NCBI GenBank assembly: GCA_002049455.2
Contig: KV918958.1
Span: 110,717 to 145,436 of the forward strand
Reading direction: 5' to 3'
Length of the DNA stretch: 34,720 nt
From: Porphyra umbilicalis
Lineage: Eukaryota; Rhodophyta; Bangiophyceae; Bangiales; Bangiaceae
Below, piece after piece: positions 83 through 23,178 of the stretch (its first letter is position 1; each line of letters begins with the position of its first letter). Under the pieces are notes generated by a model that saw nothing but the letters and a program-made list of their open reading frames with translations, made no database searches and had not been told where the DNA came from. A program made the position numbers and the translations under genes.

Positions 83-838
83 CACGTCGGCGGCCGTCGA
101 AGCGGCCGCTGGCACGTCGGCGGCCGCCCCAGTGGCCGCTGGCATGTCGGCGGCGATGGCGTGTCGTTGCACGAATGGATCGTCGGCGACGCCGTGCGCG
201 CTGCGTATGGACGTGCTCGACGGCATGCGCGTAGACGTGACGCCGTGCGCGCTGCGTATGGACGTGCTCGACGGCATGCGCGTAGACGTGGGTCTGACGT
301 GAGTCGTGCGGCCTCGTCGTGCTTTGTCGACGCGGCCGCAACACCCCTCGGCGGCGCGGCCGCGTCGCGCTCTGGCGACGCGGCCGCAGCACCCCTCGGC
401 AGCGCGGCCGCATCCATCTTTGGCGGCGCGGCCGCGTCCGCTCTTTGGCGATGCGGCCGCCACGCCCCTTGGTGGCGCGGCCGCGTCGCACTTTGGCGGC
501 GCGGCCGCGTCTCCGTTGGCGGCGCGGCCGCGTCGCGCTCTGGTGACACGGCCGCAACATCTCTCGGCGGCGCGGCCGCGTCGCACTTTGGCGGAGCGGC
601 CTCGTCGCCCCTTGGCGGCGCGGGCCACCACGCCCTTTGGCGGCGCGGCCGCGTCGCACTTCGGCGGCGAGGCCGCGTCGCCCCTTGCGGGGCGGCCGTA
701 GAGCGACGGGGAGAACAGGAAGTGGACGATGGGTGGTACATGAATGGCGACACAGGCGGCACGCCTGAGGACTTTGCGCGTCGCCAGCACTTGCGCGATA
801 TGGTGAAGCGGTGGTCGCGAATGTTTTCTTCTCAGTAG
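83..838 (+). CDS. 3' part of a GGCCGC-rich, Ala-rich reading frame, possible transposon gene end
   Basis: The frame is open from 83 (after a TGA at 80-82) to a TAG at 836-838. I see no convincing ATG, so the start is either upstream with a break or absent. Most of the product is low-complexity Gly-Ala-Ala-Ala-Ser coded by GGCCGC repeats. Only the last 40 or so residues look non-repetitive: an acidic stretch (EQEVDDGWY), then FARRQHLRDMVKRW. This loosely resembles the H-x2-L-x2-D-L-x2-HVW tail that ends both transposases in this window. An ENE-like element follows 54 bases after the stop, as for the transposon genes, so I infer the 3' end of a third Harbinger-type gene. The antisense strand is also open over the repeats, so coding here rests mainly on context. 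Confidence 0.35.
   Translation, partial: HVGGRRSGRWHVGGRPSGRWHVGGDGVSLHEWIVGDAVRAAYGRARRHARRRDAVRAAYGRARRHARRRGSDVSRAASSCFVDAAATPLGGAAASRSGDAAAAPLGSAAASIFGGAAASALWRCGRHAPWWRGRVALWRRGRVSVGGAAASRSGDTAATSLGGAAASHFGGAASSPLGGAGHHALWRRGRVALRRRGRVAPCGAAVERRGEQEVDDGWYMNGDTGGTPEDFARRQHLRDMVKRWSRMFSSQ
188..289. repeat. 51-bp tandem duplication (2 copies)
   Basis: The block 188-238 is repeated essentially exactly at 239-289, starting GACGCCGTGCGCGCTGCG. The length of 51 is a multiple of three, so any frame through it stays open. Confidence 0.9.
310..700. repeat. GGCCGC-centred minisatellite
   Basis: About a dozen units, each carrying a NotI-like palindrome (GCGGCCGC) followed by variants of GTCGCACTTTGGCGGC. 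In the frame ending at 838 the palindrome codes for Ala-Ala-Ala. The same palindrome recurs in the coding and spacer DNA of element 1 (3700-4140, 6140-6310, 7930-8500, 9500-9570). Confidence 0.8.
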
Positions 839-4596: not shown

Positions 4597-7046
4597 ATGG
4601 CGGCCGCCACTGGCACGGTGGTGGGAGGCGATTCGTCGGCGGCCGCCACAATGACGGTGACGCCAGCGCAGGCGGCCGCGGAGGGTGCCGCGCGTGCTCT
4701 GGCGGCGCCCGTGGTGTCGAGTCCGTCGCCACCGGTGACAGCTGCCGACAGACGGGCTGCGAGTTCTGCTGCGGCGGCGTCACCGGTGGCCAAGAAGAAG
4801 GCGGGGCGCGGCGTGGCGTGGTCGGACGAAGAGCGCTTGTGCCTCTGCAAGGGCTGGCTCACGACGACGGTGGACCCGGTCCTCGGGACGAACCAGACGA
4901 ACACGACGTTCTGGAACGCGATGGTGGACAACAGCCGGGACGCCATGATCGAGGCGCGTCTACCCCAGTTGGAGAAGCGCCTGCAGCGGAGCGACCGAGT
5001 CATGGAGCGGACGTTCCGCTACGACATATCCAACGCGACGCATCGTCTAAACGCGTGTCGCATCTCTGCCGTCAAGCGCCAACTGACAGGCTCGCTGACT
5101 GAGGAGGACCTCGACATGGCCGCAGTGGCCCTGTACAATGACAAGGGGCCCTACCAAGGAATCCGTCGCGAGGCGGCGGCCATCAAGTGCGACTATTTCA
5201 CTGCTGGCGCCTTCTCCGCGCCAACCCCAAGTTTAGCATCGATGCTGCTATGGAGCACCAGACGTTGACGGGCTACAGCGTTTTTGGTGACGCAAGCAAG
5301 GACTCGGACGAGTCCGACGATGACGAAGTGTCCACGACGCCGAACAAGCGCCGTGCTACCGGCGCATTGGAGCGACCGATGGGGACAAAGGCCGCCAAGG
5401 CGGCCTTTCGCTCCGACGTCTCCCTCGAGCGCGAGTCGGCGGCGCACACAGCCGCGCTCAACTCTTTGGCCAAGTCTTCGGCTGAGCGCAATGACCTGGC
5501 GAAACGTAAGCACGCTGTGGAGTTTTGGTCGATGCCACACGTGCGCGACACGCCGCAAGGTAAGGCCTACTGGGCGAGGCAGCTGGACGCGCGGCTGGCC
5601 GAAGAGGGAGGGCTCGCGGCCATCCCCGCAACGTCTGTTCGGGTTGGCGGCGCGGCACACGCGGCGCCCTTGGCGACAAGAGCAGCGTCCTCGACGGCCG
5701 CATTGACGTCTACAGCGGCCGTCGCGGCCGCTGAGGTGGCCGCGACGGCCGCACTGGCGCCAGCGGCCGTCTCAGCTCCGTCTGCGCTTGCGTGCGCCGC
5801 GGCCACGGCGTCCGGTACCATCGCATCGAGCGCCCGGACACCGCCGACACTGGGGGCACACCCCGAACACGTCAAAGACACGGCGGAGGCCGTCGCGGTG
5901 CGAGCAGCTGCCTCTGCGGAGCCGGCCGCGCGCCGTCGCCCTGGTTCGCAGGAGGCCCGTGCCGACGTCGACACGCACCGGCGCCGAGCCGCGGCGGTCG
6001 CCGCCGCTGCGGCCAAGGAGCGAGTTGACGCAGCAGAGTACCTGGCGCACGCCAAGGCGCAGCGCCTCCACGCGGAAAGGCGCGTGGCGCTCGTGCGCCA
6101 GCAGGCGGCGGCGGACGCTGCCAAGGCGGCAACCGGCAAAGCGGCCGCCACCCACGCGGCTACAGACGCTGCCGAGGCGGCGGCCGCCAATGCGGCCGCC
6201 ACTCAGGCGGCCGCAGATGCTGCCGAGGCAGCGGCTGCCACGGCGGCCGCCACTCAAGCGGCGGCGGACGCCGCCAAGGCGGCGGCCGCCACGGCGGCCG
6301 CCACCCAGATGTCCGCGGCCGCCGACGGTGGCGGACGTGTTGCTTTGGCGCCGGCCGCTGCGAATGTCGACGACGTCCTCGACGTCGTCGAGCTTCTCGA
6401 CGACGAGGAGCTCGTGGGTAACACGCTGGTCGAACGCGTCGTCGGGCCCGGCGTCCACGGCGGTGTGCACAACGGCCTGCAGCGTGGCCGCCTCAACGGC
6501 GGACGCGACGGCGGCGGCCGCAAGGATGGCCCCCGCGCGGGAGAAAGCCGTCGTGAGGATGACGACGACACGCCTTGCAGCCCACCGCTGCCGCGGTCGT
6601 CTACCCGGCGCTCCGCACGGGCAAGTGCTGCGATGAAGACCAAGCGGGCGGCCTGGGAGGAGGAGAGGCGAACGACGTCTATGTTCAAGAACATCGACGC
6701 CGCCCTCAAGAGAGCAGCCGCAGCGGCCCACGGCGCCGCGACCTCTCCTGCGTCCGCGACGCCGGTCGCGTCACCTGCGGGCACCGCGGGCGACGGCCAC
6801 ACGTCCAACACGACGGCGAGAGCGTCCACCATGGCCACCGCGCCCGCGGCGCTGCCGACCGCGGCGCGGACTGTCGCGGACGGTGCCCGCAACTGGGACG
6901 CCGACCTCGAGGCCGCGGACCAAGAGTTGTACGACGCTGAGGCCGCGGGGGAGGAGGAGGAGGAAGAGAACCGCGAGGAGGACACGCTCTACCTCGGTAC
7001 GCCGCCGCCGCCCCCCCCCGCCCTCAGCGTTTCCGCGCCTGTGTGA
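4597..7046 (+). CDS. Myb/SANT-like Harbinger accessory protein with NAM-associated C-terminus, one apparent frameshift
   Basis: In Harbinger transposons a Myb/SANT-like protein binds transposon ends and brings the transposase to the nucleus and DNA. The start chosen is the ATG at 4597 (context CACCAATGG). The Myb/SANT-like domain covers 4801-5150, beginning VAWSDEERLCLCKGWL, with LPQLEKRLQR and TGSLTEEDLD matching LPSALEKQFKR and TGNLSEEDI of the element 2 protein. Near 5188-5196 the homology jumps to another frame (HCWRLLRANPKF aligns with ACWRVLRQSDKF); one extra T in the T-run would join them. The second frame runs to 7046 and holds ERPMGTKAAK, the NAM-associated C-terminal signature. It then has Ala-rich 17-residue repeats (DAAEAAAATAAATQAAA type), an acidic patch and a basic AAMKTKRAAWEEERR segment. 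The break could be an assembly error or a real lesion. Confidence 0.7.
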
Positions 7047-7889: not shown

Positions 7890-8852
7890 ATGCCAACGAT
7901 GGCGCACCACCACCCCACTCACGCCATAGATGACGAGGCCGCCCCGTCGGCGGCCGCCCCGTCGGCGGCCGCCCCGTCGGCGGCCGCCCCGTCGGCGGCT
8001 GCCCCGTCGGCGGCCGCTCCGTCGGCGGTCGCCGCGGCGCCGGCCGCCTCGTCGGCGGCCGCCGCGCCGCCAGCCGCCGCGCCGCCGGCCGCCTTATCGG
8101 CGGCCGCCCCGTCGGCGGTCGCCGCAGCGCCGGCCGCCTCGTCGGCGGCCGCCGCGCCGCCGGCCGCCTTATCGGCGGCTGCCGTTGCGCCGGAGACCCC
8201 GATGGCGGCCGCCACGTCGGCGGCCGGCCTATCGGTGCCGTCCGACGTCATGGCCGCAGACGCTGCCACCCCATCTGCGGCCACCCCGTCGGCGGCCACC
8301 CCGTCGGTGGCCACCCCGTCGGCGGCCACCCCGCCGGCGGCCGCCGTCGAGCCTGCGATTCCGTTGGCGGCCGCCACGTCGGCGGCGACCTCGTCGGCGG
8401 CCGGCATGTCGATGTCGACCGAAGCGATGGCCGCCGACGGTACCACCTCGTCGGCCATCCCATGGGCGGCCGCCCGATTGGCGGCCGCCGCCGCGCCGGC
8501 CGCCTCGTCGGACTCAACGGAGTCAACGGACTCTGAGCCCGCGGAGGCCGCGAGCTCTGAGCTCAAGGGCGAGGGCACGAGGGCGGCCGCCGCAGACCCC
8601 GGGGCGGCCTCCTCGTCGTCCTGTGACGAGTCATCCTCTGGGGGGTCCTCGTCTGACGACGACGACCCGCGTCCTCGCCGCGTTTTCTCCGCGTCTGTTG
8701 CAGACGCGTGGCAGGACTCCGTGCAGACAGCTGCGGCCTCTGGCCGCCGCATGACGCGCTCACTAGAGCGTCCCCCCCCCCTGGTGCGGACCACCAGCAC
8801 ACCGCAGGCGCTCCCGCGCCGCATCATCCGCCGTCGACGTCGCCGTCGCTGA
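7890..8852 (+). CDS. Ala-rich repeat protein in the element 1 spacer
   Basis: An ATG at 7890 (or 7899, in the better context ACGATGG) opens a 320-residue frame. Residues 15-200 are Ala-rich, built from a 15-bp unit giving Ala-Pro-Ser-Ala-Ala. The C-terminal third is more complex: an acidic Ser/Asp part (SSGGSSSDDDDPRPRR), VADAWQDSVQTAA, then a basic tail ending RRIIRRRRRRR. It lies between the two convergent genes of element 1. The opposite strand is also open for about 300 codons over the same repeats, reading Asp-Gly-Ala-Ala-Ala, a motif also present in the transposase C-terminus. I do not recognise the protein. The non-repetitive tail favours the + frame, but coding is not certain. Confidence 0.4.
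   Translation: MPTMAHHHPTHAIDDEAAPSAAAPSAAAPSAAAPSAAAPSAAAPSAVAAAPAASSAAAAPPAAAPPAALSAAAPSAVAAAPAASSAAAAPPAALSAAAVAPETPMAAATSAAGLSVPSDVMAADAATPSAATPSAATPSVATPSAATPPAAAVEPAIPLAAATSAATSSAAGMSMSTEAMAADGTTSSAIPWAAARLAAAAAPAASSDSTESTDSEPAEAASSELKGEGTRAAAADPGAASSSSCDESSSGGSSSDDDDPRPRRVFSASVADAWQDSVQTAAASGRRMTRSLERPPPLVRTTSTPQALPRRIIRRRRRRR
7935..8450. repeat. 15-bp GTCGGCGGCCGCCCC repeat array
   Basis: Near-perfect 15-mers from about 7945 to 8030, then degenerate copies to about 8450. Related units (GGGCGGCCGCCCCGTCAT) lie inside the transposase gene at 9497-9575. The spacer and the coding insertion therefore share one repeat family. Confidence 0.8.
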
Positions 8853-9206: not shown

Positions 9207-9247
9207 GAGGAAAAAAAAACCCGCAATGCGGGAGGAAAAAAAACCTT
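9207..9247 (-). promoter_or_regulatory. ENE-like RNA element 3
   Basis: Read on the minus strand: AAGG (9247-9244) with CCTC (9210-9207), three pairs. U8 (9243-9236) faces U9 (9219-9211). The upper hairpin CCCGC/GCGGG (9232-9228 and 9224-9220) has a 3-base loop. Three extra bases, CCU (9235-9233), lie on the 5' side between the U tract and the hairpin; their partners are missing on the 3' side, so this copy is asymmetric. It starts 20 bases after the transposase stop. Confidence 0.6.
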
Positions 9248-9267: not shown

Positions 9268-10779
9268 TCATCCGACGTACGGCTGCAGCAGCGCACCGCG
9301 CTGACCCCAGACATGCTCTATGAGGTCATCTTGAAGCATCTCATGCTCGTCCTCATCGAGCGCTTGGATACGCGCCGCCAGCGAGTGCAGCAGCGTTCCC
9401 TCAGCGTTGGTTGCCCCTTGCATTCCTGGCAGCAGCTGCAATGCAGGCACGTCTCCGGCCAACGGCTGTAGCACGCCGTCAGCATCCACCTCCCCGTCAT
9501 GGGCGGCCGCCCCGTCATTGGCGGCCGCCTCCCCGTCATGGGCGGCCGCCCCTTCATGGGCGGCCGCCCCGTCATTCGGCTCTTGCTCCCCGCCGTTGAC
9601 CTCGTTGTCGGCGTCGTCATGTTGGTCCGTCACGCCCGCCGCGCGTCGCTCGTGCGAGAGATACGTGTGCTTGTGCTCTTTAACGTTCATGTTGTGCAGG
9701 ATGGCGACGGCCATGCCAGCGCGCCGCAACGCCGCGACGGTCTCGAATCGCGCCGGGCGCAGAATGACGTTGAAGCGACATGAGAGCACCGCATAGAGAC
9801 GCTCGACGTCCTTCCTGAGCGCCTCTTGTAGTCGGTTGTAGGTCAGCTCCTTGCGCGTCGTGGGCCGAACGTGGGGGGTAGCAAAGAAGGGGAAACGAGG
9901 ATAGATACCATCAGCAAGGTAGTAGAGCAATGTCCGCGTGCGACCGTCAAGGGTGAAGGGCTTGTCACGGGGCGGCCAAGCCCCCGAGACAATGTCATGG
10001 TACAAGGGCGACGACTTCAGTACGTTGAGGTCGTTCTGGCTGCCGGCGCAACCAATGTAGAAGTGGTAGATGTACGTGTCCTCGTCGCAGACCGTCTCGA
10101 GCACGACCGTCCGACGGCCCTTGCGGTTCTGGAACTGCCCCGCCAGGGCCGTCGGACAGGCGCGCCATTGCCAGTGCGAGCAGTCGATCGCCCCAATGCA
10201 GCCGGGCATCCCGCGCGCCGCGTTGCGTCGCAGCATCTCGTTCAGCTCAGAGTCGTTGGGTGGCCGCAGGTAGTCGGGGCCAAATCGGGCAATGATAAAG
10301 CGTACGAACTTGTGAACGGCCACAGCGATCGTGGAGCGACTCAAACGAACATACTCATCACCACGGTCATACGCCTGCCCATACCCGAGGACGCGGATTG
10401 CAGCAAACACCTTCTGCAGCGGGTACGCTTGCGGCCGCCCGGTCGCGTTCACCTGCTGCCTCCACCACGGGCGATCTCGCAGCGCCTCGTAAATCTGATG
10501 GAAGAGGGCAGTGCTCATACGGAAACGAGTGCGGAAATGGCGCTCCCCGTAAACGGGCGGCCGCCCCGACCACCCAAAATAGTCCCGCATGATGGACATC
10601 GCCCCCAGGTCGAAATCGCGGGCTACATTGCGAGCACGACCAGGAAAAGAGCCTCCGCGGCCCCGCGGGCTCCGCATGCCTAAAACGCTGCGACGCAGCG
10701 CGCGCGCACGGCGGAGAGAAAGGGTCGCGCTTACCGCGAGCATCTCGCCCATGGCGAGGTCGTCCTCATCAGAGGACAT
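9268..10779 (-). CDS. PIF/Harbinger transposase, Plant_tran type (element 1)
   Basis: 503 residues from the ATG at 10779 (MSSDEDD); the frame is open further up, but that part is translated tandem repeat. The order is a basic N-terminus, a helix-turn-helix-like part (FHQIYEALRDRPWW, then YVRLSRSTIAVAVHKFV), and the RNase H-like DDE core of the Plant_tran/DDE_4 group. Acidic residues: D199 in GAIDCSHWQW, D250 in GSQNDLNVL, a conserved LADGIYP motif, and E326 in LQEALRKDVERLYAVL. D199-D250 and D250-E326 spacings (51 and 76) are identical in the element 2 enzyme. After the core comes a Gly/Ala/Asp repeat insertion and the conserved tail HEMLQDDLIEHVWGQRG. The core looks intact. It faces the Myb-like gene and ends just before ENE-like element 3. 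Confidence 0.93.
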   Translation of the reverse strand: MSSDEDDLAMGEMLAVSATLSLRRARALRRSVLGMRSPRGRGGSFPGRARNVARDFDLGAMSIMRDYFGWSGRPPVYGERHFRTRFRMSTALFHQIYEALRDRPWWRQQVNATGRPQAYPLQKVFAAIRVLGYGQAYDRGDEYVRLSRSTIAVAVHKFVRFIIARFGPDYLRPPNDSELNEMLRRNAARGMPGCIGAIDCSHWQWRACPTALAGQFQNRKGRRTVVLETVCDEDTYIYHFYIGCAGSQNDLNVLKSSPLYHDIVSGAWPPRDKPFTLDGRTRTLLYYLADGIYPRFPFFATPHVRPTTRKELTYNRLQEALRKDVERLYAVLSCRFNVILRPARFETVAALRRAGMAVAILHNMNVKEHKHTYLSHERRAAGVTDQHDDADNEVNGGEQEPNDGAAAHEGAAAHDGEAAANDGAAAHDGEVDADGVLQPLAGDVPALQLLPGMQGATNAEGTLLHSLAARIQALDEDEHEMLQDDLIEHVWGQRGALLQPYVG

Positions 10780-10939
10780 GACGGAGTGGACGATAGCCCC
10801 GGCGAGGAGGATGGTCGTCACAGCGGCGCTCGGCGACGAGTGCACAACGATGACAGCGATGCAGGCATGGCGGCAGCGACGTGGTCGCCAGCAGTAGCGG
10901 GTGCCTCCTAAAAAGCTCCTGCGCCGGGCCGGGTGGAAC

Positions 10940-11690
10940 GGCCGCCGCACCCGTGGCGACGCGGCCACCTCGCCCACCCCCGCAAAACGGACACCTGGAG
11001 GGCCCCCACCACCCCCTACCTGCGAAATCGGTGCCGCTAGAGGGGGGGGGAGGCCGCAGCACCCGTGGCGACGCTGCCACCTCGCCCACCCCCCCAAAAC
11101 GGACCCCTGGAGGGCACCCACCACCCCCTACCTGCGAAATCGGTGCCTCTAGAGGGGGGGGGCAGGCCGCAGCACCCGTGGCGACGCTGCCATCTCGCCC
11201 ACCCCCCCAAAACGGACCCCTGGAGGGCCCCACCACCCCCTACCTGCGAAATCGGTGCCGCTAGAGGGGGGGGGCAGGCCGCAGCACCCGTGGCGACGCG
11301 GCCACCTCGCCCACCCCCCCAAAACGGACCCCTGGAGGGCACCCACCACCCCCTACCTGCGAAATCGGTGCCTCTAGAGGGGGGGGGAGGCCGCAGCACC
11401 CGTGGCGACGCTGCCACCTCGCCCACCCCCCCAAAACGGACCCCTGGAGGGCACCCACCACCCCCTACCTGCGAAATCGGTGCCTCTAGAGGGGGGGGGG
11501 AGGCCGCAGCACCCGTGGCGACGCGGCCACCTCGCCCACCCCCCCAAAACGGACCCCTGGAGGGCACCCACCACCCCCTACCTGCGAAATCGGTGCCTCT
11601 AGAGGGGGGGGGAGGCCGCCGCACCCGTGGCGACGCGGCCTCCTTGCCCACCCCCCCAGATCGGGCCTGTAGAGGCCCATCCCCAGCATC
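10940..11690. repeat. 112-113-bp tandem array, about 7 copies
   Basis: The landmark CCGTGGCGAC falls at 10951, 11063, 11176, 11288, 11400, 11513 and 11625. Units vary mainly in G-run length and in CGCTAGAGG versus CCTCTAGAGG. Each unit holds a G run of about 8-10, a C run of about 7 and TACCTGCGAAATCGGTGCC. The array begins 160 bases upstream of the transposase start. It may be the promoter or subterminal transposase-binding array of element 1. Confidence 0.93.
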
Positions 11691-12624: not shown

Positions 12625-12627
12625 TAA
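12625..12627 (+). other. Target-site duplication TAA, left
   Basis: TAA directly abuts the left terminal repeat of element 2 and is repeated directly at 21512-21514. A 3-bp TAA or TTA duplication is the hallmark of PIF/Harbinger insertion. Confidence 0.9.
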
Positions 12628-12656
12628 GGGCAATCCCAACAACGTCGGCCCCATCT
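12628..12656 (+). repeat. Left terminal inverted repeat of element 2
   Basis: 29 bp starting GGGCAATCCCAACAACGTCG. It is the reverse complement of 21483-21511 except for one base (A at 12639 versus the G expected from the right copy). Confidence 0.93.
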
Positions 12657-12856
12657 CATATTCGTTACACGTTGTGCCACGAAGCAGAAACGTGTCTCTT
12701 TATTAAGGAAATGGGGCCACCGGGCTTTTCTGTCAACGCGATCGACCCCATTCTGGTCTTCAATGGTCATGATGGAATCCTGGAAGTACGAATCAACTCC
12801 GAAGCGCAGAAATGGGGCGGGCGCTGGACCTGCCCCATTCGTGAAGCGAAATGGGG
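12649..12856. promoter_or_regulatory. Left subterminal ATGGGG cluster
   Basis: ATGGGG or its complement CCCCAT occurs six times: 12649, 12711, 12746, 12812, 12833 and 12851, with a CCCCAAT variant at 12872. The right end has the same motif three times (21414, 21468, 21485). Short motifs clustered just inside both ends are typical binding sites for a transposase or its Myb-like partner. Binding is inferred. Confidence 0.5.
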
Positions 12857-12872
12857 CTGGTCCGGTGCCGGC

Positions 12873-13279
12873 CCCAATGTGTTCTGCGTTCTCATTGGTA
12901 GGGTCAAACTAAATGTATATCGGCGTATATCGGTTTAGGGCGCAACGTGTGTTGGAAGGATCTTGATCAGTTTTGAAAAATAATGGCGCGGTTGTCCACT
13001 TTATTACGATGATGACCGCCCTCGGCATTCGAGAGCGGACCAACAGTTTTAGTCGATTGCAGCTGGGTGACGGAGCAGTCGGTTGGTGTCGCGTGATCGG
13101 ATTCTATCGCGGGGTGCAGCGCGTGCCGCGTCGGATGGGATCGGACATGTCCCTCAGAAAAGCGTACAGTGAGGCTCTCGCTCGCCTCGTGACCCCCGAT
13201 CTGGCCTCTGGAGTGCCTGTTGGTGGCGGGACGATGGATGGTTCAGGTGGTGCCATCACCTCCCTGTGGTCGCTTGGGT
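12873..13279. other. Left subterminal region, no gene recognised
   Basis: Less GC-rich DNA between the ATGGGG cluster and the G-rich tandem repeats. GTATATCGG occurs twice close together near 12915. No coding frame with a known domain. Confidence 0.4.
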
Positions 13280-13760
13280 ACGGCAGGGCGGCCAACACTG
13301 TTGCAGAGCCTCAGAGGGTGGGGGGGGAGGGGGGCTGAGCGAGATCGTGTGGGCGGCCGGGCCCCACACGCACACAGATATTTGCAGGTGGCGGGCCGCC
13401 CGACACTGCTTCAGAGCCTCTGGAGGGGGGGGGGGGGGTCGGACTGGATCGAGCGTTGCTCCCGGCCCGACACGCACACAGCGATTTGCAGGCTATAGGC
13501 GGTCCGCCACCGCACACAGAACGGTTTCAGAGGAGGGGGGGGGGTGGGCGGCGGCCTCGGTCGTCTCCCGGCGCCCGCCCGCCGCATTTGGGGGGGGCTG
13601 GTGGGCCGCCACCGCCCACCGCGCCCCCGCACAGGGGGTGCGGCGGTCGATCCAGGACCAGGCGGTACCTGGTTGGCTGCCTCCCAGTGTTTGCGGGGCA
13701 GGTGGTGGTCCACCACTGCGCACAGTGCCTATTGAGAGGGGGGGGGACTCGGTCCGTCGC
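13280..13760. repeat. Degenerate ~104-116-bp G-rich tandem repeats upstream of the transposase
   Basis: Recurring landmarks are CAGAGCC(T) followed by a long G run (13304, 13412; CAGAGGA variant at 13528) and CACGCACACAG followed by TTTGCAGG (13367, 13471). The G run at 13425-13438 has 14 G. At least three copies are clear; decayed ones continue to about 13760. The position matches the 112-bp array in front of the element 1 transposase, though the sequence differs. Confidence 0.7.
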
Positions 13761-14240
13761 TGTGGCCTGCGCCAGGCGTCGCCCGACCGTTCACTGCCCG
13801 ACCCATCGACGTCGTGCCCATCACTGTGACGCGCGCCGCCATCACCCCCATCGTCCCCGGCCATCACACCCATCGTTACCCCCGCTCTATTCTATCGCCC
13901 TGTTCCTCCTCCACGACGTACCCGCTGCGGCGGCACCTGCCCTGTCCTCGGTTTGAGGTGCACGATCCGCGCACGCAACCCAACTTGTGTGCTACCCCTC
14001 TATTTTTTTTCATCCCCAGCCTCCTGTTCTGAGCTCCACTACGACCTGCGCGCATTGGTCCGTCCCCCCCCCCCTGCGCTGCCGACCCGTGATTGAGTTG
14101 CATTGGCGCCCACGACACGTTTGGCCGTGTCCGGCGCCACCGACCGCGGCGGCTGCCGCCAATCGCTTCCGCGGGCGTTTCCACTCGTCCCCCACCTCCT
14201 GCGCTGACCACCCGCCCTAGGGACCCTCTGCTGAGCACTC

Positions 14241-15782
14241 ATGGACGCTGGCGAGGCGGGGCTGTCGAGCACTGCATCTTTGCTCGCAGACGACGATGGT
14301 GGCGTCGTTTGTGCCGCTGTGCGCGCCCACATGGGCGTGCTGTTCCTGCTTCGACGACGGTCGCGCTCCGGCCGTGCCAACCGCCGTCGTCGCTACCGTG
14401 GCTTCGTTGCTGGGCGTCGGCCAAACAAGCGGCGCGACTTTGCCGCTGGGCTCTTCAACATCCAGCGCGACTACTTTGGGGTCAACGCGGAGGCTCCCAT
14501 CTACGACGACCGTGACTTTGAGACGCGGTTTCGCGTGCCGCGCAGTGTGTTTCGACGCGTCTACCAGGCAGTGAAGGACGAGCCGTTCTTCCAGCAGCGG
14601 ATCAACGCGACGGGTCGCCTGCAGGCCCACCCTCTTCAGAAGGTCGTTGCCGCCTTCCGCGTCATCGCGTACGGCGAGGCGGCCGACCGTGCGGACGAGT
14701 ACGTGCGCCTCTCTCGTTCTACTGTGGCGCAAGCGACAAAGCTACTGCTGGAGTTTATTGTGCAGCGGTGGGGACCAACCTACCTGCGCCGTCCGAACAA
14801 TTTGGAGCTGAAGAAGATGATGGAGCGCAATGCGGAGCGTGGCTTTCCTGGATGCATGGGCTCGCTGGACTGCACGCACTGGGAGTGGCATCAGTGCCCG
14901 ACGGGCATGGCGGGCGCGTATCAGAGCCGAAAGGGCTCGCGCGGTGTTGTCGTCGAGGCCGTCTGCGATGAGGACCTGTGGATTTGGCACCTGTTTGTCG
15001 GTGCCCCCGGGAGCTTGAACGACATCAACGTTATGAACCAATCGCCCCTCTACCTCGACGTCACCGCCGGCCGGTGGCCGCCGCGGGATGTGCCCTTTTC
15101 CATCAACGGGACAACTCACACGCTACCATACTACCTGGTCGATGGTATCTACCCTCGTTATGCCTTCCTAGAGTCGCCCCACCCCATGCCATTGACTGAC
15201 GAGGCAAAGACCTTCAACCGTCTGCAGGAGGCGATTCGCAAGGATGTTGAGCGGCTGTTTGGCGTCCTGACTAAGCGGTTTCACATTGCCTTGCACCCAG
15301 GGCGGTGCCGTTCCGTGAAGCAGCTGATTATGACCTACAAGGCGGTGTGCATTCTACACAACATGTGTGTAGAGGCCCGTCGTGGCACGTTTTTGAGCCG
15401 CCGCAGACATGCACGAGGGAACAACGGGGGTGGGAGTGCGGGTGGTGAGGGTGAGGGTCCTGCAGGTGAGGCTGCCGCTGCAGCGGGGGGTCATGGTGCC
15501 CAAGATGGTGGGTCAGGCGATGGCGGCGCTGCTGCCGCCGGGGGAGCTGCACCTGGCGGCGGCATCGGCAACGGCGGCGGCCTCCCGGCCGCCGCTGACG
15601 CTGTCGCTGACCCGCCCCCGGCACTGAACGCTGTGGAGCAACCCCCCGCGGGCGGCATGGTTGTTGTCTTTGATGCATGGGGTGAGACTCGCAATCCCGC
15701 CGAGCACGAGCAGCTCCGTGCCGACCTGACGGCGCACGTATGGAACGACCGCGGCGAGTTGCTGTCCCCGTATGTTGTGTAG
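14241..15782 (+). CDS. PIF/Harbinger transposase, Plant_tran type (element 2)
   Basis: 513 residues from an ATG at 14241. A basic N-terminus is followed by a helix-turn-helix-like segment (VFRRVYQAVKDEPFF, then YVRLSRSTVAQATKLL). The DDE core reads GSLDCTHWEWHQCP (D210), VCDEDLWIWHLFVGAPGS, LNDINVM (D261), YYLVDGIYP and LQEAIRKDVERLFGVL (E337). These are signatures of Plant_tran Harbinger transposases, which cut at the terminal repeats and insert into TAA or TTA. A Gly/Ala-rich linker (about residues 394-455) leads to the conserved tail HEQLRADLTAHVWNDRG. It clearly shares ancestry with the element 1 enzyme but is well diverged, so the two elements belong to different lineages. A TTTTTTTTTCATCCCCAG tract at about 14005-14022 looks like a 3' splice site, so a 5' leader intron is possible. 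Confidence 0.95.
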   Translation: MDAGEAGLSSTASLLADDDGGVVCAAVRAHMGVLFLLRRRSRSGRANRRRRYRGFVAGRRPNKRRDFAAGLFNIQRDYFGVNAEAPIYDDRDFETRFRVPRSVFRRVYQAVKDEPFFQQRINATGRLQAHPLQKVVAAFRVIAYGEAADRADEYVRLSRSTVAQATKLLLEFIVQRWGPTYLRRPNNLELKKMMERNAERGFPGCMGSLDCTHWEWHQCPTGMAGAYQSRKGSRGVVVEAVCDEDLWIWHLFVGAPGSLNDINVMNQSPLYLDVTAGRWPPRDVPFSINGTTHTLPYYLVDGIYPRYAFLESPHPMPLTDEAKTFNRLQEAIRKDVERLFGVLTKRFHIALHPGRCRSVKQLIMTYKAVCILHNMCVEARRGTFLSRRRHARGNNGGGSAGGEGEGPAGEAAAAAGGHGAQDGGSGDGGAAAAGGAAPGGGIGNGGGLPAAADAVADPPPALNAVEQPPAGGMVVVFDAWGETRNPAEHEQLRADLTAHVWNDRGELLSPYVV

Positions 15783-15799
15783 AGACGCAAGGTTACACA

Positions 15800-15840
15800 A
15801 AGGTTTTTTTTTCCCCGCTGGGCAGGGGTTTTTTTTCCTT
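15800..15840 (+). promoter_or_regulatory. ENE-like RNA element 4
   Basis: Sense strand: AAGG (15800-15803) pairs with CCTT (15837-15840), four pairs. T9 (15804-15812) faces T8 (15829-15836). The upper hairpin is CCCC with GGGG (15813-15816 and 15825-15828), extended by GC with GC (15817-15818 and 15822-15823) around TGG, with A15824 bulged. It starts 18 bases after the transposase stop. It is an inverted near-copy of element 5. Confidence 0.75.
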
Positions 15841-16050
15841 AACATCGTTGTCCATAGTGTGTACCATCAGGTCCGCTCTAGTTGAGATCCCCACCACCTC
15901 AGCTGGCGCTTTTGCGGGGTTCCCTGCCTCTCCGCCGTCCCTTCCCCCAGCCCGCCCACCCCTGCGCCCCCACCTCCTTCCAATGGCACGGCTCGCGGCC
16001 TCCACCTCCCCATCGATCCGCCCGCGCCCACCCCCTCGCAGGGCGGCGCC
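15841..16050. other. Pyrimidine-rich stretch between ENE-like element 4 and the satellite
   Basis: C-rich on the + strand, then an abrupt switch to G-rich after about 16050. No gene recognised. Confidence 0.4.
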
Positions 16051-17235
16051 CGCCGCGAATGCGGCGGCTGCGGCGGCGGCGGCGGAGGTGGCGGCGGCGG
16101 TCGGCGGGGGCGGCGGTCGGCGGGGGCGGCGGTCGGCGGCTGTGGCGGGGCGGCGGTCGGTGGGGGCGGCGGTCGGCGGCGGTGGGAGCGGCGGCCGGCG
16201 GCGGAGGCGGCGGCGGTCGGCGGGGGCGGCGGTTGGTGGGGGTGGCGGCCGGCGGCGGAGGCGGCGGCGGTCGGCGGGGGCGGCGGCTGGCGGCAGGGGG
16301 GCGGCGGTCGGCGGGGGCGGCGGTCGGCGGGGGCGGCGGTCGGCGGGGGCGGCGGTCGGCGGTGGGGGGGGCGGCCGGCGGTTGTGGCGTCGGTCGGCGT
16401 TGGGGCGGCGGCAGACGGCGGGGGCGGCGGTCGGCGGGGGCGGCGGTTGGTGGGGGTGGCGGCCGGCGGCGGAGGCGGCGGCGGTCGGCGGGGGCGGCGG
16501 CTGGCGGCAGGGGGGGCGGCGGTCGGTGGGGGCGGCGGTCGGCGGGGGCGGCGGTCGGCGGGGGCGGCGGTCGGCGGTGGGGGGGGCGGCCGGCGGCTGT
16601 GGCGTCGGTCGGCGTTGGGGGCGGCGGCAGACGGCGGGGGCGGCGGTCGGCGGGGGCGGCGGTTGGTGGGGGTGGCGGCCGGCGGCGGAGGCGGCGGCGG
16701 TCGGCGGGGGCGGCGGCTGGCGGCAGGGGGGGCGGCGGTCGGCGGGGGCTGCAGTCGGCGGGGGCGGCGGTCGGCGGTGGGGGGGCGGCCGGCGGCTGTG
16801 GCGTCGGTCGGCGTTGGGGGCGGCGGCAGACGGCGGGGGCGGCGGTCGGCGGGGGCGGCGGTTGGTGGGGGTGGCGGCCGGCGGCGGAGGCGGCGGCGAT
16901 CGGCGGGGGCGGCGGCTGGCGGCGGAGGTGGCGGCCGACAGCTGGGGGGCGGCCGGCGGTGGGGGCGGCGGTCGGCGGCGGGGGGGCGTCTGACGGCGGT
17001 CGGCGGTGGGGGCGGCGGCCGACGGCGGGGGGGCGGCCGGCGGTGGGGGCGGCGGTCGGCGGCGGGGGGCGCGGCCGGCGGCGGAGTCGGCGGCCGGCGG
17101 CTGTGGCGGCGGTCGGCGGTGGCGTCGGCGGCGGGGGCGGCGGCTGGCGGCAGGGGGGGCGGCGGTCGGCGGGGGCGGCAGTCGGCGGGGGCGGCGGTCG
17201 GCGGCGGGGGGGGCGGCCGGCGGCAGGGACCGGGG
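16050..17235. repeat. G-rich satellite spacer (16-bp GTCGGCGGGGGCGGCG unit)
   Basis: About 1.2 kb almost devoid of A and T, with strong G excess on the + strand. The basic unit is 16 bp. A higher-order unit of about 200-215 bp is visible from TGGCGTCGGTCGG at 16385, 16600 and 16799. Many G runs of 4-7 make G-quadruplexes and R-loops plausible. Long open frames on both strands are a by-product of the missing stop codons and are not taken as genes. The spacer lies exactly between the two convergent 3' ends. Confidence 0.9.
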
Positions 17236-17247
17236 AAATGCACTTGT

Positions 17248-17290
17248 AAAGGAAAAAAAACCCCTGCCCAACGGGGAAAAAAAAACCTTT
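17248..17290 (-). promoter_or_regulatory. ENE-like RNA element 5
   Basis: Read on the minus strand: AAAGG (17290-17286) pairs with CCTTT (17252-17248), five pairs. U9 (17285-17277) faces U8 (17260-17253). The upper hairpin equals that of element 4 except that a C-G pair has become U-G, so pairing survives as a wobble. It starts 60 bases after the Myb-like stop. Confidence 0.75.
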
Positions 17291-17350
17291 GTCATACTCA
17301 ACATGCAAACACATCATGTCCCACACACAGGCAACAAACTACAGGTATCT

Positions 17351-18547
17351 CTACTCGGAGTCATCGTCGTCATCTGTCGACTCGTTCTCTTCGTCCAGGA
17401 GGCGAGTCGTGGCCGGGGTGCGCGCGACCTGAGCCACGGCTGCCTGCCGCTTGGTCTCCATCGAGCGGCGGCCGGCGGCAGTCTTTTGTTGCTGGCGCAC
17501 GCGCGCCACCGCGGACTTGGCCGCCGACGCCGCCGCCAGAGCAGATGCAGATGTCCCATCCGCACCCAACGGCGCCGCCAGCGCTCCTGGCGCCGGCGGC
17601 GCCCGCGCTCCGGCGGCAGGGCCAGCAGCAGTCCGCGGCGTCTCCGTCGTGCCGCCAACACCCAGACCAGCAACGCCGTTCCCCACACCACCGACAGAGT
17701 CGTCAGTCCCCTGACTCCCCCCCAAATCAATAGTAGAAGAGCTCGCCAAACCTGCACGCTCAAGCATCTTCTGCGTAATGGCCAAGCGGTACCGAGCCGC
17801 TTCAGGGGTGTGCCGCATCAGTGGAGAGTCAAAAAAGCAAAGGGCAGTGCGCTCATTTTGCGCGTCCGTCAGCTTGCGGAGGGCCTCAGTACTGTCCTTG
17901 ACTTGAGCGTCCATCTGGATGTCGTCTTGCCGCTGCGTCTTGGCAGCTTTGATGCCAAGAGGGCGACCCTGGAAGCCGCCGTTGCGTCGGCTGCGGCTGC
18001 TGCCGCTGCCACTCGCGTCGTCGTCCGACGACGAGTCGCCAAAAATGTCGTTTGTAGGGGCGTCGCCGCCGTTGGCGGCGCCGCTGAACTTGTCACTCTG
18101 CCGCAATACGCGCCAACACGCCACCCACTTGCAGTGTGCGACCTTGGCCTTGCGTTTGCGAGTTTTGTCGTTGCGCTTGTCTTGGTCTCGGTCGGCACGG
18201 ATGGCGTCGTACACGTCCAGCGAGCAGTAGCGCGCCACAGCGCCGCTAATGATATCCTCCTCAGACAGGTTGCCAGTGGTCGGCATGGCCTTAACAGCGA
18301 GGTAGTGCGACGTGAAGGTGCTCACCCCCGTTCGGATGCGCTTGAACTGCTTCTCCAGCGCGCTTGGTAGCCGGTCCACTCTCATCGGCCCCTTCTTAAG
18401 AACTTTCTCAGCCCACAGCTGGTGAATAGTCCCCCACAGGTTCTCCTTGGTGCGGGCAGTCGCCCTCACCGGGTCACTCGTCACCTCCAGGTAGGCCTCA
18501 CAGAGTGGCACACGGTCGGCGTCCGTCCATCCCAGAGCAGACCCCAT
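17351..18547 (-). CDS. Myb/SANT-like Harbinger accessory protein with NAM-associated C-terminus (element 2)
   Basis: 398 residues from an ATG at 18547. Residues 7-108 form a Myb/SANT-like DNA-binding domain (LGWTDADRVPLCEAYL, NLWGTIHQLW, TGNLSEEDI). A basic segment (KRNDKTRKRKAK, about 124-135) could be a nuclear signal, followed by CKWVACWRVLRQSDKF, an acidic Ser/Asp linker, and GRPLGIKAAK (194-203), the signature of the NAM-associated C-terminal family. In Harbinger transposons this partner binds the ends and supports nuclear entry of the transposase. The reading frame is open for at least 15 codons before the ATG and reads PAVTYALPKK there, resembling the sequence before the Myb domain in element 1, so a longer or spliced form is possible. 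It is intact, unlike the element 1 homologue. Confidence 0.88.
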   Translation of the reverse strand: MGSALGWTDADRVPLCEAYLEVTSDPVRATARTKENLWGTIHQLWAEKVLKKGPMRVDRLPSALEKQFKRIRTGVSTFTSHYLAVKAMPTTGNLSEEDIISGAVARYCSLDVYDAIRADRDQDKRNDKTRKRKAKVAHCKWVACWRVLRQSDKFSGAANGGDAPTNDIFGDSSSDDDASGSGSSRSRRNGGFQGRPLGIKAAKTQRQDDIQMDAQVKDSTEALRKLTDAQNERTALCFFDSPLMRHTPEAARYRLAITQKMLERAGLASSSTIDLGGSQGTDDSVGGVGNGVAGLGVGGTTETPRTAAGPAAGARAPPAPGALAAPLGADGTSASALAAASAAKSAVARVRQQQKTAAGRRSMETKRQAAVAQVARTPATTRLLDEENESTDDDDDSE

Positions 18548-18567
18548 CTTCTTGGGTAGCGCGTAGG

Positions 18568-19608
18568 TTACAGCCGGTACGGAGGCGGAGGGTGTGCAGG
18601 AAACAGCTGGGGAGGGCGCCGAGGCACAGGGACTAGCTCATACGTCGGGTCGAGAGAGGGTTGAGTCCCCTGCACCATGTACACTGGACGGCTCGTTGGC
18701 TCGGATGGCGTCGGCTGCCGCAACGGCTGCGACGGCGCGTGCCACCAAGTCCACGGCGCGGACGTGCTCCGTGCGGGCGTCCGCGTCAGCACCCACTGGA
18801 AGTCCTGCGTGCCTGCCGGACCTCCGCACTGGTCGACCCGCCAGGGCGAGCGCGCGTCAGGCGAGCGCCACAGAGTCGCCGGTGGTGCACACTCCCAGAC
18901 GGGGGGTTGGTCGTCGCCCCACGCCTCGTAGGGGGGTGCCCACCGCCAGCCGGGAGGAGGGCCCGGGGGGTGGCGCGGCAGGTCCCACGGCCGGTCCCAG
19001 TCGCCGCCCCTTGGCGAGCCCCAGTCGGCCGTTGGCGGGCCAGGCGGTGGGCCACACGGCTGTCGCGGCAAATTGCGCGGGCGGTAGTCGTCGGTGCCGC
19101 CCCTGAAATGGGGCGGATGTCTTGGCGGGCTTGGGGGAGGGCCCGGCGGCAGAGGCCGCGGCAGGCGAGGAGGGCTGCACGAGCGGTACCCGCGACCGCG
19201 AGAAGGTGGATGCTGCGGAAAGCGCGGCCGGCCGGCGGGGCGACCAGCCGACAGGCGCCCAGCGCTTGGACCACAGTGGTTGGGGGCGAATGGCGGGCCC
19301 CTTGTAGGACAGGGAGGGGCGCCAAAGGGCACCCGCGGGGGGCTCGGCGGTCGCCCGCCGTCGTTGTTGCCACCGCCGCGCGGATGCACACGCACAGGGC
19401 CTGGAGGGCCGCCGTCAAAACCGGGGCCGTCCCAATCGCCGCGGTGTCGCACTTGCCGCCGTTGTTGGTCACAGTCGTCGCGGTCTCCATGTCGGCGGCC
19501 GCGTCCGACAGGGGAGTACGGCCGCTTAAATGGTCGGGGCCGCCCGCCCTCAGCCGGACGACAAAAGCCGGGGGGCGGGCGATGACCACCCGGCGCCGCG
19601 CGCGGCAT
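18568..19608 (-). CDS. Pro/Gly/Arg-rich ORF upstream of the Myb-like gene (element 2)
   Basis: 346 residues from an ATG at 19608, ending 20 bases before the Myb-like ATG in a different frame. It is rich in Pro, Gly, Arg and aromatic residues (GPPPGPPTADWGSPRGGDWD type), and ends PVYMVQGTQPSLDPTYELVP then PPPPYRL. No globular domain is recognised. Such composition is typical of disordered RNA-binding or condensate-forming proteins, but the role is unknown. Element 1 has a comparable Pro-rich region in the same place, which argues against chance. It may be a separate protein on a shared transcript, or the N-terminal part of the Myb protein joined by splicing or frameshifting. The opposite strand is also open over much of the region. 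Confidence 0.5.
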   Translation of the reverse strand: MPRAAPGGHRPPPGFCRPAEGGRPRPFKRPYSPVGRGRRHGDRDDCDQQRRQVRHRGDWDGPGFDGGPPGPVRVHPRGGGNNDGGRPPSPPRVPFGAPPCPTRGPPFAPNHCGPSAGRLSAGRPAGRPRFPQHPPSRGRGYRSCSPPRLPRPLPPGPPPSPPRHPPHFRGGTDDYRPRNLPRQPCGPPPGPPTADWGSPRGGDWDRPWDLPRHPPGPPPGWRWAPPYEAWGDDQPPVWECAPPATLWRSPDARSPWRVDQCGGPAGTQDFQWVLTRTPARSTSAPWTWWHAPSQPLRQPTPSEPTSRPVYMVQGTQPSLDPTYELVPVPRRPPQLFPAHPPPPYRL

Positions 19609-21413
19609 GGGAGGAGGAGGGGGGGGAGGCGGGGGGGGGGCATGTCGGCGTGCTCGCAGGCGTTCTCGCAGGGACTAGGAGGGGGAGGCGGGCACAGGGT
19701 ACCGTTACGATTGCGCTGCGTGCGCCGCCGCCGTGAGTCGTTGACGCCCTTCCCGCGCGTCATGCTCGGGAGCGGAGGCGTCGTCAAAAGCAGGGGAGAC
19801 GGTGTGCGCGGGCTAAAGACGCCGTGGGAGTGGGGTACGGAGGCGGGCGCCGCGGCGCCGCCGGCGGGTTGCGCGCACACAAACGGCACGCGGAGGAGCC
19901 GCGCGCGGGACACACCACAGGGCCCCCACACTGCGTGCCTGCGACGGTGGGAGACCGTTGGCTGCCCGCCCGCGCCCGCGTCCGTCCACAAAGAGCGAAA
20001 AAGAGTCGCGGTTGACCCGCCCACGGCACGCCACCGCATGCTCTCTATGCGTGCCTGGGTCGGAGGGCGCAGCCTGCGCCCCACCTGAGGTGGCCCGCAA
20101 GAGGCCAAAAGAGGTCGGGCGTCGGACTCGTGCGAGGGGACAACGCGACAGGTCCCATCCCCCCAAACCCACGCGCGGGAACAACGCGACAGGTCCCCCA
20201 AATCGCTGTCTCGCGTGGAAGGCGACCGCCTGTCGGTCCCCTCGGACTGCTCACGCCGGGAGGCGTGTCTCGGCGGACCCACGTGTGCGTGGCGAGCGCG
20301 CGTGTCGAGGCACGCTCTGGCCCGCTCGCGCCACAAAAAAGGCGGCACTCGCCGGACCCGCGCAGGGAAACTGGTCGAGGTCCTCCAATGCGCTGCCTGG
20401 GGAAGCGGGGTGCACCCGCGCAGGCACCCCCGATCCCACAATGCCTGTTAATTGGACCGCACACGATGCGCGGACTGACGACAGCGCAGTGGCTGCCATC
20501 ATCGCTGTACGCCCACGCAACGCAATCAGTCGACATACGTGTGTGTGAGGCCCTAATCGCGATCACGCGACGGGATGACGTAACCACTCATTTCTGCGCA
20601 ACGCTCTCGAACCTCCCACCCAGTGTCACAACTGGCCGCCACATCGTCCGTTTGAGACAAGCGGCGTCCAATCACGTCCACAGGAGGACTGAGGGCGGAG
20701 CCCAGCCCGACCAGATTGCCACAAGATCGAGACAGAACATTTTGAAAATACCTGGATTGCGCGAATGACACTTCGAGGCCGGGGCACGGCTTAGAAATTT
20801 TGCATTGACAGCCAATCAAAGAGCACCTCTTCCGTCCGCTGACTGGAGAGCCTGACCCGAGAGCGTCGCAGCGCAATCGATTCTAAAAGCTTGCACTCCC
20901 AAGAGATGGTCCATGGGTGTTGCGAGCTATTTGGGAGGACCACTCTGCGGTGCGGACAGTGCCGTGGTCCTCTCGGGCAGGTGATTGTCCACCAGACTGG
21001 CCCAGATCGCTGGTGTGGCGCCTCGTGCAACGCAGGTCCTCGCCTGTGTCAGGCGTTGACATCGAATATTCTTGCGCGTGGTGCCGTGGCACTGCCAGGT
21101 GTCGTCGCATTCACCCCATGTTGTTGCGTCTTGAGCCTGATTCCTGTCGGTTTGGGCTTCATTCGGATACTGTGCATCAATTCTTTGTCGCGTGGCATGC
21201 CCGAGCCCATTTTCGAATGAATCTAGTGACTATCTATGCACGATCTGCCATCGGTTTTGGACACATCAGCCAGCGTCGTTCGGCTAGTCCCCTGCAATAC
21301 GAGGCGAGGTCAGATTGGGGCCTCGTCGGACCCACCAATGTAGACCCTATCGTTCAATCGGCCAGAGGGCATTCGATGGTCCATGTAGCAAAGTCCATCG
21401 CGACGTTTGGGAT
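19609..21413. other. Right interior and subterminal region of element 2
   Basis: G-rich tracts (19610-19650) lie just upstream of the Pro-rich ORF. ACAACGCGACAGGTCCC is repeated at 20140 and 20181. TGACGTAA, a bZIP/CRE-type site, lies at 20576. GAGGACCAC (20935-20943) pairs with GTGGTCCTC (20964-20972). A promoter for the minus-strand genes is expected here. No further gene recognised. Confidence 0.45.
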
Positions 21414-21490
21414 ATGGGGCCCCCGGGATGGTCTTTCCATTCAGGGACCCACACGTTGCACCTCCAGATGGGGTTAAATGGAAGATGGGG
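21414..21490. promoter_or_regulatory. Right subterminal ATGGGG cluster
   Basis: ATGGGG at 21414, 21468 and 21485, the last inside the terminal repeat. Matches the cluster at the left end. Confidence 0.45.
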
Positions 21491-21511
21491 CCGACGTTGC
21501 TGGGATTGCCC
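21483..21511 (-). repeat. Right terminal inverted repeat of element 2
   Basis: 29 bp ending GCTGGGATTGCCC. 28 of 29 bases match the reverse complement of 12628-12656. Confidence 0.93.
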
Positions 21512-21514
21512 TAA
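21512..21514 (+). other. Target-site duplication TAA, right
   Basis: Direct copy of 12625-12627, directly outside the right terminal repeat. Confidence 0.9.
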
Positions 21515-23108: not shown

Positions 23109-23178
23109 GGTAGTGCCGGTGCCACTACCAGGTCAGCGCCACCTTGGTGGGACTACCGGGTGGCGCCCGCGGGCGCCA
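23109..23178. promoter_or_regulatory. Palindrome cluster upstream of the anchor-A gene
   Basis: GGTAGTG (23109-23115) pairs with CACTACC (23123-23129). GCGCCACC (23136-23143) pairs with GGTGGCGC (23159-23166). TGGCGCCCGCGGGCGCCA (23161-23178) is a perfect 18-bp palindrome. They lie 90-160 bases upstream of the TATA box, as expected for binding sites of dimeric factors. Confidence 0.5.

What the first reader, a model, noticed from the sequence alone, without database searches (positions are those of the whole stretch)
15800..15840. ENE-like, poly(A)-clamping RNA elements at the 3' ends of Harbinger transposon genes
Five elements in this window (893-928, 7340-7380, 9207-9247, 15800-15840, 17248-17290) share one plan in the sense strand: a short lower stem, U7-U9, a GC-rich hairpin, U7-U9, closure of the lower stem. 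Two facing U tracts between two stems is the defining geometry of an ENE, which captures a poly(A) tail as a U-A-U triple helix and blocks deadenylation. ENEs are known from PAN RNA, MALAT1 and transcripts of plant and fungal transposons. All five lie 18-293 bases after the stop of a transposon or transposon-like gene and point in the sense direction. U8-U9 tracts would allow an unusually long triplex. A transposon of an alga-like eukaryote using this device for both of its mRNAs would be new to me.
Basis: partly seen in the sequence, partly recalled or inferred. Interest (0 to 1): 0.93.

Follow-up and report, generated by a model that had tools for sequence, protein, structure and literature searches.

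The report
ENE-like RNA hairpins in algal transposons
Harbinger-type jumping genes in a red seaweed carry, just after their coding regions, a small RNA hairpin with two facing runs of U that most likely grips the message's own poly(A) tail to protect it; the U runs look longer than in known examples of this device.

Summary
All five elements exist, each reading [A]GG-U7..9-hairpin-U7..9-CC[U], in sense, 19-295 nt after a stop. The motif occurs 327 times in this 83.8 Mb genome against 4 for the reversed pattern. Of the first 30 of the 327, 29 have a PIF/Harbinger transposase or NAM-associated partner gene within 1.5 kb upstream in sense, none antisense. The 86 elements with enough flank fall into 29 flank clusters. 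The upper hairpin covaries. In four of six compared pairs the element is 95-100% identical while coding ends are 55-83% identical. It is therefore a conserved 3'UTR RNA structure of Harbinger transposons, very probably of a Bangiales red alga. Best explanation: an ENE that clasps the poly(A) tail as a U-A-U triplex; that step is inferred, not shown. It differs from described ENEs in long uninterrupted U tracts (7-12 nt; two patterns with 5-6 U in both tracts gave 0 hits) and a basal stem of about 3 bp without covariation. Many Harbinger copies lack it. Verdict: a new variant of a known kind. Poly(A) binding, mRNA ends and effect on stability are untested.

The parts
15800..15840 (+). Element named in the finding: AAGG-U9-CCCC(GCUGGGCA)GGGG-U8-CCUU, 3'UTR of the transposase of transposon 2
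   Evidence: 40/41 identical to a subfamily whose last 300 coding nt are 82% identical
15804..15812 (+). 5' U tract (U9)
   Evidence: sequence
15813..15828 (+). upper hairpin CCCC-GCUGGGCA-GGGG
15829..15836 (+). 3' U tract (U8)
   Evidence: sequence
17249..17289 (-). AAGG-U9-CCCC(GUUGGGCA)GGGG-U8-CCUU, 3'UTR of the NAM-associated gene of transposon 2
   Evidence: 41/41 identical to a subfamily at 83% coding identity
9207..9247 (-). AAGG-U8-CCU(CCCGC-AUU-GCGGG)-U9-CCUC, 3'UTR of the transposase of transposon 1
   Evidence: 39/41 identical to families at 71% and 55% coding identity
7340..7380 (+). AAGG-U8-(CCUACC-GUAC-GGUAGG)-U9-CCUC, 3'UTR of the NAM-associated gene of transposon 1
   Evidence: the element matches alone as a 47-nt island on contig C363
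893..928 (+). GAGG-U7-C(CCUUC-CUC-GAAGG)-U7-CCUC, 56 nt after the stop of an unidentified third gene of transposon 1
14241..15782 (+). transposase gene of transposon 2 (PF04827, PF13359)
17351..18547 (-). partner gene of transposon 2 (NAM-associated, PF14303)
12628..21511 (.). transposon 2: terminal inverted repeats GGGCAATCCCA[A/G]CAACGTCGGCCCCATC at 12628 and 21511, with TAA target-site duplications at 12625-12627 and 21512-21514
9268..11124 (-). transposase gene of transposon 1 (PF04827); open frame, true start probably internal
5187..7046 (+). partner gene of transposon 1 (NAM-associated, PF14303); open frame, possibly with further exon(s) upstream
161..838 (+). 3' part of a third, unidentified, low-complexity gene of transposon 1
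   Evidence: copy L196 without Pfam match; conserved spacing

Best explanation
The elements are ENE-like RNA structures in the 3'UTRs of PIF/Harbinger transposon mRNAs of what is very probably a Bangiales red alga. Shown: a covarying G/C-rich hairpin flanked by two facing uninterrupted U tracts (7 nt or more) and closed by a short AGG/CCU stem, in the sense strand wherever the gene was identified, usually 2 to 100 nt after a long open frame, conserved more than the coding ends around it, in many families. Inferred: after cleavage and polyadenylation downstream of the element, the poly(A) tail threads into the U/U internal loop, pairs Watson-Crick with one tract and Hoogsteen with the other (up to about 8-9 U-A-U triples), hides the 3' end from deadenylases and raises the level of the transposon mRNAs.
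For: Window: 5 against 0.00 in shuffles. Genome: 327 against 4 reversed-pattern matches. Context: of the first 30 of 327 hits, 29 have a Harbinger transposase (15) or partner gene (14) within 1.5 kb upstream in sense, 0 antisense, and 19 have the other gene downstream in antisense; among the first 100 hits, 13 convergent pairs within 4 kb (12 if the doubled element on C21 counts once), 0 same-strand, 0 divergent. Structure: 37 model matches (36 distinct), 17 cells changed on both sides (14 in the upper helix) against 4.9 shuffled, 0/500, and every slid register scores lower; own halves of 34 distinct hairpins pair better than swapped halves, 13 of 5000 shuffles at least as good, MFE 1 of 500. 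Selection: element 40/41, 41/41, 39/41 and 39/41 identical where the last 300 coding nt are 82, 83, 71 and 55% identical and the next 60 nt 53-70% (four of six pairs; the other two in the Full report section). U tracts: 0 genome hits for two patterns with 5-6 U in both tracts. C-G pairs beside the U tracts (CC after U1 in 95 of 105, not required by the pattern), as needed in the Evade ENE (PMC12501189). Of 48 distinct elements with 400 nt downstream, 38 have no A run of 8 or more there, and 9 of the other 10 runs belong to an antisense element, so a poly(A) tail is the natural partner.
Against: No transcript, 3'-end, binding or stability data. The basal stem is short and does not covary beyond GG/CC (pair 1: 24 of 29 paired against 22.7 shuffled), and GG/CC was itself required by the pattern; in the fitted alignment the pair next to the loop is G-C in 26, G-U in 9 and gapped in 1 of 36. 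The 5' flank AAA is conserved as sequence (27, 27 and 22 of 29), which a plain ENE does not ask for. U tracts exceed the three to five triples usual for natural RNA triplexes (PMC12609000). Many Harbinger copies lack the element: 31 of 47 transposase domains have no strict match within 2 kb, and of 20 of those inspected 15 have no model match within about 1.1 kb. One element (L160) has a genomic A8 about 100 nt downstream.
Confidence: 0.77

Rival explanations
1. A structured 3'-end signal: the hairpin with U tracts directs cleavage/polyadenylation or termination, keeping the two convergent transposon genes apart; no triplex with the tail.
For: Usually shortly after the stop; the two convergent elements can be as close as 167 nt; AAA just upstream is conserved.
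Against: 29 of 30 sampled hits follow Harbinger genes, so it is not a general signal of this genome. A processing signal does not call for two facing U tracts of at least 7. Many Harbinger genes do without it.
Confidence: 0.13
2. A binding site for a U-rich-RNA-binding host or transposon protein (export or localisation), with the hairpin as scaffold.
For: Uninterrupted U tracts; a loop sequence, GYUGGGCA, shared between several flank clusters.
Against: In other families the hairpin sequence varies while pairing persists; facing tracts on both sides of a helix are more than a U-binding protein needs (inference).
Confidence: 0.07
3. A DNA-level element: A-tract bending, transposase binding site or boundary between convergent genes.
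For: Two A tracts about two to two and a half helical turns apart; in transposon 2 the two elements form a 48-nt inverted repeat, 96% complementary.
Against: Fixed sense orientation relative to the genes; compensatory hairpin changes; in transposon 1 the elements differ in hairpin sequence, so pairing between them is not conserved.
Confidence: 0.02
4. Chance or low-complexity sequence.
For: The window is rich in simple repeats.
Against: 327 against 4; 0.00 in shuffles; conserved islands.
Confidence: 0.01

Closest known systems
ENEs of plant and fungal transposable elements (Tycowski, Shu and Steitz 2016; not held here, known from its citation in PMC12501189 and from recall)
   Same: U-rich internal loop in a stem-loop, G-C pairs flanking the U tracts, 3' region of transposon transcripts, including DNA transposons (hAT, by recall)
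   Different: Here PIF/Harbinger in a red alga, at both genes of one window transposon and three of the other; uninterrupted tracts of 7 U or more (by recall, predicted stacks there do not exceed five triples); about 3-bp basal stem
Evade (Copia93) ENE of Arabidopsis (PMC12501189, first of five parts and passages read)
   Same: 3'UTR, U-rich internal loops closed by G-C pairs; tested there to protect from deadenylation and raise mobility
   Different: LTR retrotransposon, four U-rich tracts; here a DNA transposon with two tracts
KSHV PAN RNA ENE (recalled)
   Same: poly(A)-tail partner, two facing U tracts
   Different: viral non-coding RNA with a longer basal stem and short tracts (recalled)
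MALAT1 / MEN-beta triple helix
   Same: U-A-U triplex; ten major-groove base triples in MALAT1, as follows from the variants described in PMC12609000 (passages)
   Different: Encoded A-rich tract (recalled) and a stack interrupted by a C-G doublet; here mostly no A tract downstream and no interruption

Membership tests
ENE | stem-loop with two facing U-rich strands in an internal loop | tested here: met
   upper stem covaries
ENE | stable lower stem | tested here: inconclusive
   2-5 bp; AGG/CCU conserved, no covariation beyond GG/CC; GG/CC was part of the search pattern
ENE | G-C pairs next to the U tracts | tested here: met
   CC after U1 in 95 of 105; of the two basal pairs the outer is G-C in 35 of 36 and the inner in 26 of 36, with 9 G-U and 1 gap
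ENE | sense strand, 3' end of a transcript | tested here: met
   position after the gene; the transcript end itself was not seen
ENE | poly(A) site downstream of the element | not testable with these tools
   no transcript data; A tract downstream absent in 38 of 48 and antisense element in 9 of the other 10
ENE | U-A-U triplex with poly(A) | not testable with these tools
   needs melting, probing or structure
ENE | raises RNA stability | not testable with these tools
   needs a reporter assay
ENE | short stacks (up to five triples, recalled; three to five usual for natural triplexes, PMC12609000) | tested here: not met
   min(U1,U2) is 7 in 13 and at least 8 in 92 of 105, in a set whose pattern demanded 7 or more; 0 hits with 5-6 U in both tracts. 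A descriptive range, not a requirement of the family
PIF/Harbinger transposon | DDE transposase of the Plant_tran / DDE_Tnp_4 type | tested here: met
PIF/Harbinger transposon | second, Myb/NAM-like gene | tested here: met
   PF14303 at 28.0 and 32.1 bits against a cut-off of 27.7
PIF/Harbinger transposon | terminal inverted repeats and 3-bp TAA/TTA target duplication | tested here: met
   transposon 2 only; transposon 1 not resolved

The most novel reading that the evidence does not exclude
These elements form uninterrupted U-A-U triple helices of 7 to 9 triples with the poly(A) tail, longer than any natural uninterrupted stack known to me, held by a basal stem of only about 3 bp. DNA transposons of red algae have fitted them to several of their own genes as a general anti-decay device, with minimum tract length under selection.
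Probability: 0.42. Interest if true: 0.82.

Novelty: new variant of a known kind. Interest (0 to 1): 0.72.

Why it matters
It would carry poly(A)-clasping RNA elements into red algae and the PIF/Harbinger superfamily, with hundreds of natural variants in one genome. The long pure U tracts challenge the view (recalled) that natural triple-helical stacks stay at five or six, and the set makes the length rule, the basal stem and the tail-protection model directly testable. It also suggests that DNA transposons, whose mRNA is not their transposition intermediate, still gain from defending that mRNA against decay.

Tried and rejected
Rfam: no match at gathering in the window; at E<=10 for 15700-15900, five weak matches, none an ENE. 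Transposase relatives in viral and prokaryote contigs: none among the 4 and 12 pattern hits. GU-rich downstream signal: not enriched (0.150 against 0.142 expected). Pairing between the two elements of one transposon as the conserved feature: rejected, since it holds in transposon 2 but the hairpins of transposon 1 differ. L171 as a relative of the partner protein: not shown, so 1 of 30 sampled elements stays unassigned. Transposon 1 inverted repeats: not found; part of L239 reads N.

Literature. PMC12501189: first of five parts plus passages. PMC11411715, PMC12609000, PMC8250186: passages only (the last was not used). Search listings, of which I saw titles and starts of abstracts: 20 of 181; 20 of 77; 3; 20 of 23; 10 of 22; 0; 15 of 54,569, spoilt by 'ene' matching 'energy'; no listed title or abstract start describes an ENE in red algae or in Harbinger. 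The library lacks Tycowski 2016 and Brown 2014, whose statements on stack length are recalled, so earlier mention of red algal ENEs cannot be excluded.

Full report
What is there. The window lies at C198:110717-145436 of an 83.8 Mb genome in 665 contigs. A PAP/fibrillin protein encoded in the window is 77% identical over 70% of its length to one of Pyropia vietnamensis, and the transposase is 60% identical over 73% to one of Pyropia yezoensis, so the host is very probably a Bangiales red alga; the species is not identified. Two Harbinger-type transposons occupy much of the first 21.5 kb. Transposon 2 (12628-21511) has near-identical terminal inverted repeats flanked by TAA duplications, a transposase gene (14241-15782 +) and a convergent NAM-associated gene (17351-18547 -). 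Transposon 1 has a transposase (9268-11124 -), a NAM-associated gene (5187-7046 +) and, it seems, a third, unidentified gene (161-838 +; copy L196 without Pfam match). Three probes from its parts keep their spacing in other copies: 6320 and 2000 nt in the window, 6330 and 1988 upstream on the same contig, 6217 and 1978 on C45, 6372 and 2329 on C37; on C77 the first two lie 6171 nt apart. Not fitting or incomplete: C19 has the second and third probe (1832 nt apart) without the first, C351 the first alone, C186 pieces of the first. Each of these five genes carries the element after its stop. A sixth open frame, 7773-8852 + (Ala-rich, no Pfam match), lies between the convergent genes of transposon 1 and has no sense element of its own; whether it is a gene is unknown.

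Is it more than chance? In the window there are five matches against 0.00 in 100 shuffles. In the genome there are 327 against 4 for the same pattern read backwards. The hairpin pattern without the outer GG/CC gives 603+221 overlapping counts against 5. I read 20 of its listed places that were not in the strict list: 18 have no intact GG/CC frame and look mostly like decayed copies of the same families (two, L222 and L234, close with AAAG/CUUU instead), and 2 (L226, L238) are intact with an 11-nt 3' tract, beyond the 10 that the strict pattern allows. Two patterns with exactly 5 or 6 U in the first tract and 5-6 in the second, with CC directly after the first tract, give 0; mixed short/long tracts were not searched, and one model match (L153:739) has a 6-nt 3' tract.

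Where does it sit? The listing shows 100 of 327. For the first 30 in contig order, tblastn finds a Harbinger transposase (15) or partner gene (14) within 1.5 kb upstream in sense for 29, none antisense; 19 have the other gene downstream in antisense and one has a transposase match downstream in sense. From the gene side, on contigs C1-C51, 16 of 47 transposase domains (from the best 150 of 624 candidates) and 13 of 31 partner domains (from 112 matches) have a strict element within 2 kb downstream in sense; 9 and 5 have an antisense one there, presumably the convergent partner's; 0 of 78 have one upstream in either strand. Of 20 transposases without a strict match (20 of 31), 5 have a model match in the sense strand and 15 have none within about 1.1 kb. 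So the element is common but not universal in this superfamily. Copies of one family are not independent; 86 elements with enough flank fall into 29 flank clusters.

Is it an RNA structure? Hairpins differ between families and keep pairing: CCUACC/GGUAGG, CCCGC/GCGGG and CCUUC/GAAGG within transposon 1 itself, and CCCUGC/GCAGGG, CCUGCC/GGCGGG and GCCA/UGGC elsewhere; 2 of 37 fold to nothing on their own (L168, L191). On 37 model-aligned matches (36 distinct) 83% of cells pair against 76.2% shuffled, and 17 cells change on both sides (14 upper, 3 lower helix) against 4.9, reached by 0 of 500 shuffles; all slid registers score lower (the alignment was fitted to the model and leans towards it). 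Without that structural fit in the measure, own halves of 34 distinct hairpins give 3.68 bp against 3.31 swapped (13 of 5000) and MFE -4.38 against -3.61 (1 of 500); a first version with 60 hairpins gave 3.48 against 3.21, with a maximum of 3.50 in 1000. The lower stem is AGG/CCU; pairing beyond GG/CC is no better than shuffled (24 of 29 against 22.7; 12 against 10.3; 7 against 7.8; 7 against 6.7). The upstream AAA is conserved as sequence (27, 27 and 22 of 29).

Is it selected? In six compared pairs the element is 40/41, 41/41, 39/41, 39/41, 35/41 and 38/40 identical, while the last 300 coding nt are 82, 83, 71, 55, 68 and 94% identical and the next 60 nt 70, 67, 53, 63, 60 and 82% (the fifth pair has different hairpins). 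In DNA searches the element appears as a short island (42-59 nt of the query) at places where nothing else of the query aligns.

How it probably works. Two U tracts facing each other between two helices, with G-C pairs at the borders, in the sense strand near the 3' end, is the geometry of an ENE, which takes up the poly(A) tail as U-A-U triples and blocks deadenylation. This was reported for the Arabidopsis Evade element, where G-C pairs next to the U tracts are also essential (PMC12501189). Of 48 distinct elements with 400 nt downstream, 38 have no A run of 8 or more; 9 of the other 10 runs belong to an antisense element and one (L160, A8) does not. So an encoded A tract of MALAT1 type is not the rule, and the tail added after cleavage would be the partner. 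Capture, protection and the number of triples are inferred.

What differs. In 105 elements (100 of the 327, plus the window's five) the 5' tract is 7-12 and the 3' tract 7-10 nt, within a pattern that demands 7 and caps the 3' tract at 10; the shorter of the two is 8 or more in 92 of 105. PMC12609000 states that most structurally validated natural RNA triplexes have three to five base triples. Recalled and unchecked: Tycowski 2016 found no predicted stack above five, and Brown 2014 argued that stacks longer than six do not occur. The basal stem is short. The carrier is PIF/Harbinger in a red alga, with an element at several genes of one transposon. No title or abstract start listed reports this, but the key 2016 survey is not held, so priority is uncertain.

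Verdict.

Noticed in passing
L184 (C21:46852-46909) and L236 (C10:189770-189900): A third U tract: CCTACAAGCGA is repeated after the element, giving U-hairpin-U-hairpin-U, a possible natural step towards a double-domain ENE.
   Followed up: partly
window 161-838; L196: Third, low-complexity gene of transposon 1 with its own element; no Pfam match for the copy in L196. Its function is unknown.
   Followed up: partly
C198:97009-105727 and the window: Two copies of transposon 1 about 14.5 kb apart on the same contig, same orientation.
   Followed up: partly
window 7773-8852 +: Ala-rich open frame without Pfam match between the convergent elements of transposon 1; not known whether it is a gene.
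   Followed up: no
window 16080-17230: GC-rich repeat (GGCGGCGGTCGGCGG type) between the two convergent elements of transposon 2; the distance between the elements differs in another copy (1028 nt on C11).
   Followed up: no
window 10920-11640: Tandem array with a unit of about 120 nt (by eye) upstream of the transposase of transposon 1.
   Followed up: no
window 2690-2885: Direct duplication of about 100 nt (by eye).
   Followed up: no
window 23113-24378 +: Open frame with an ice-binding-like adhesive domain (PF20597, E 1.5e-33).
   Followed up: no
29 flank clusters: AAA immediately 5' of the GG is conserved as sequence although it mostly does not pair beyond the first A; its role is unexplained.
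   Followed up: partly
L239 (C198:106000-110716): A long stretch reads N (gap or withheld); left alone.
   Followed up: no
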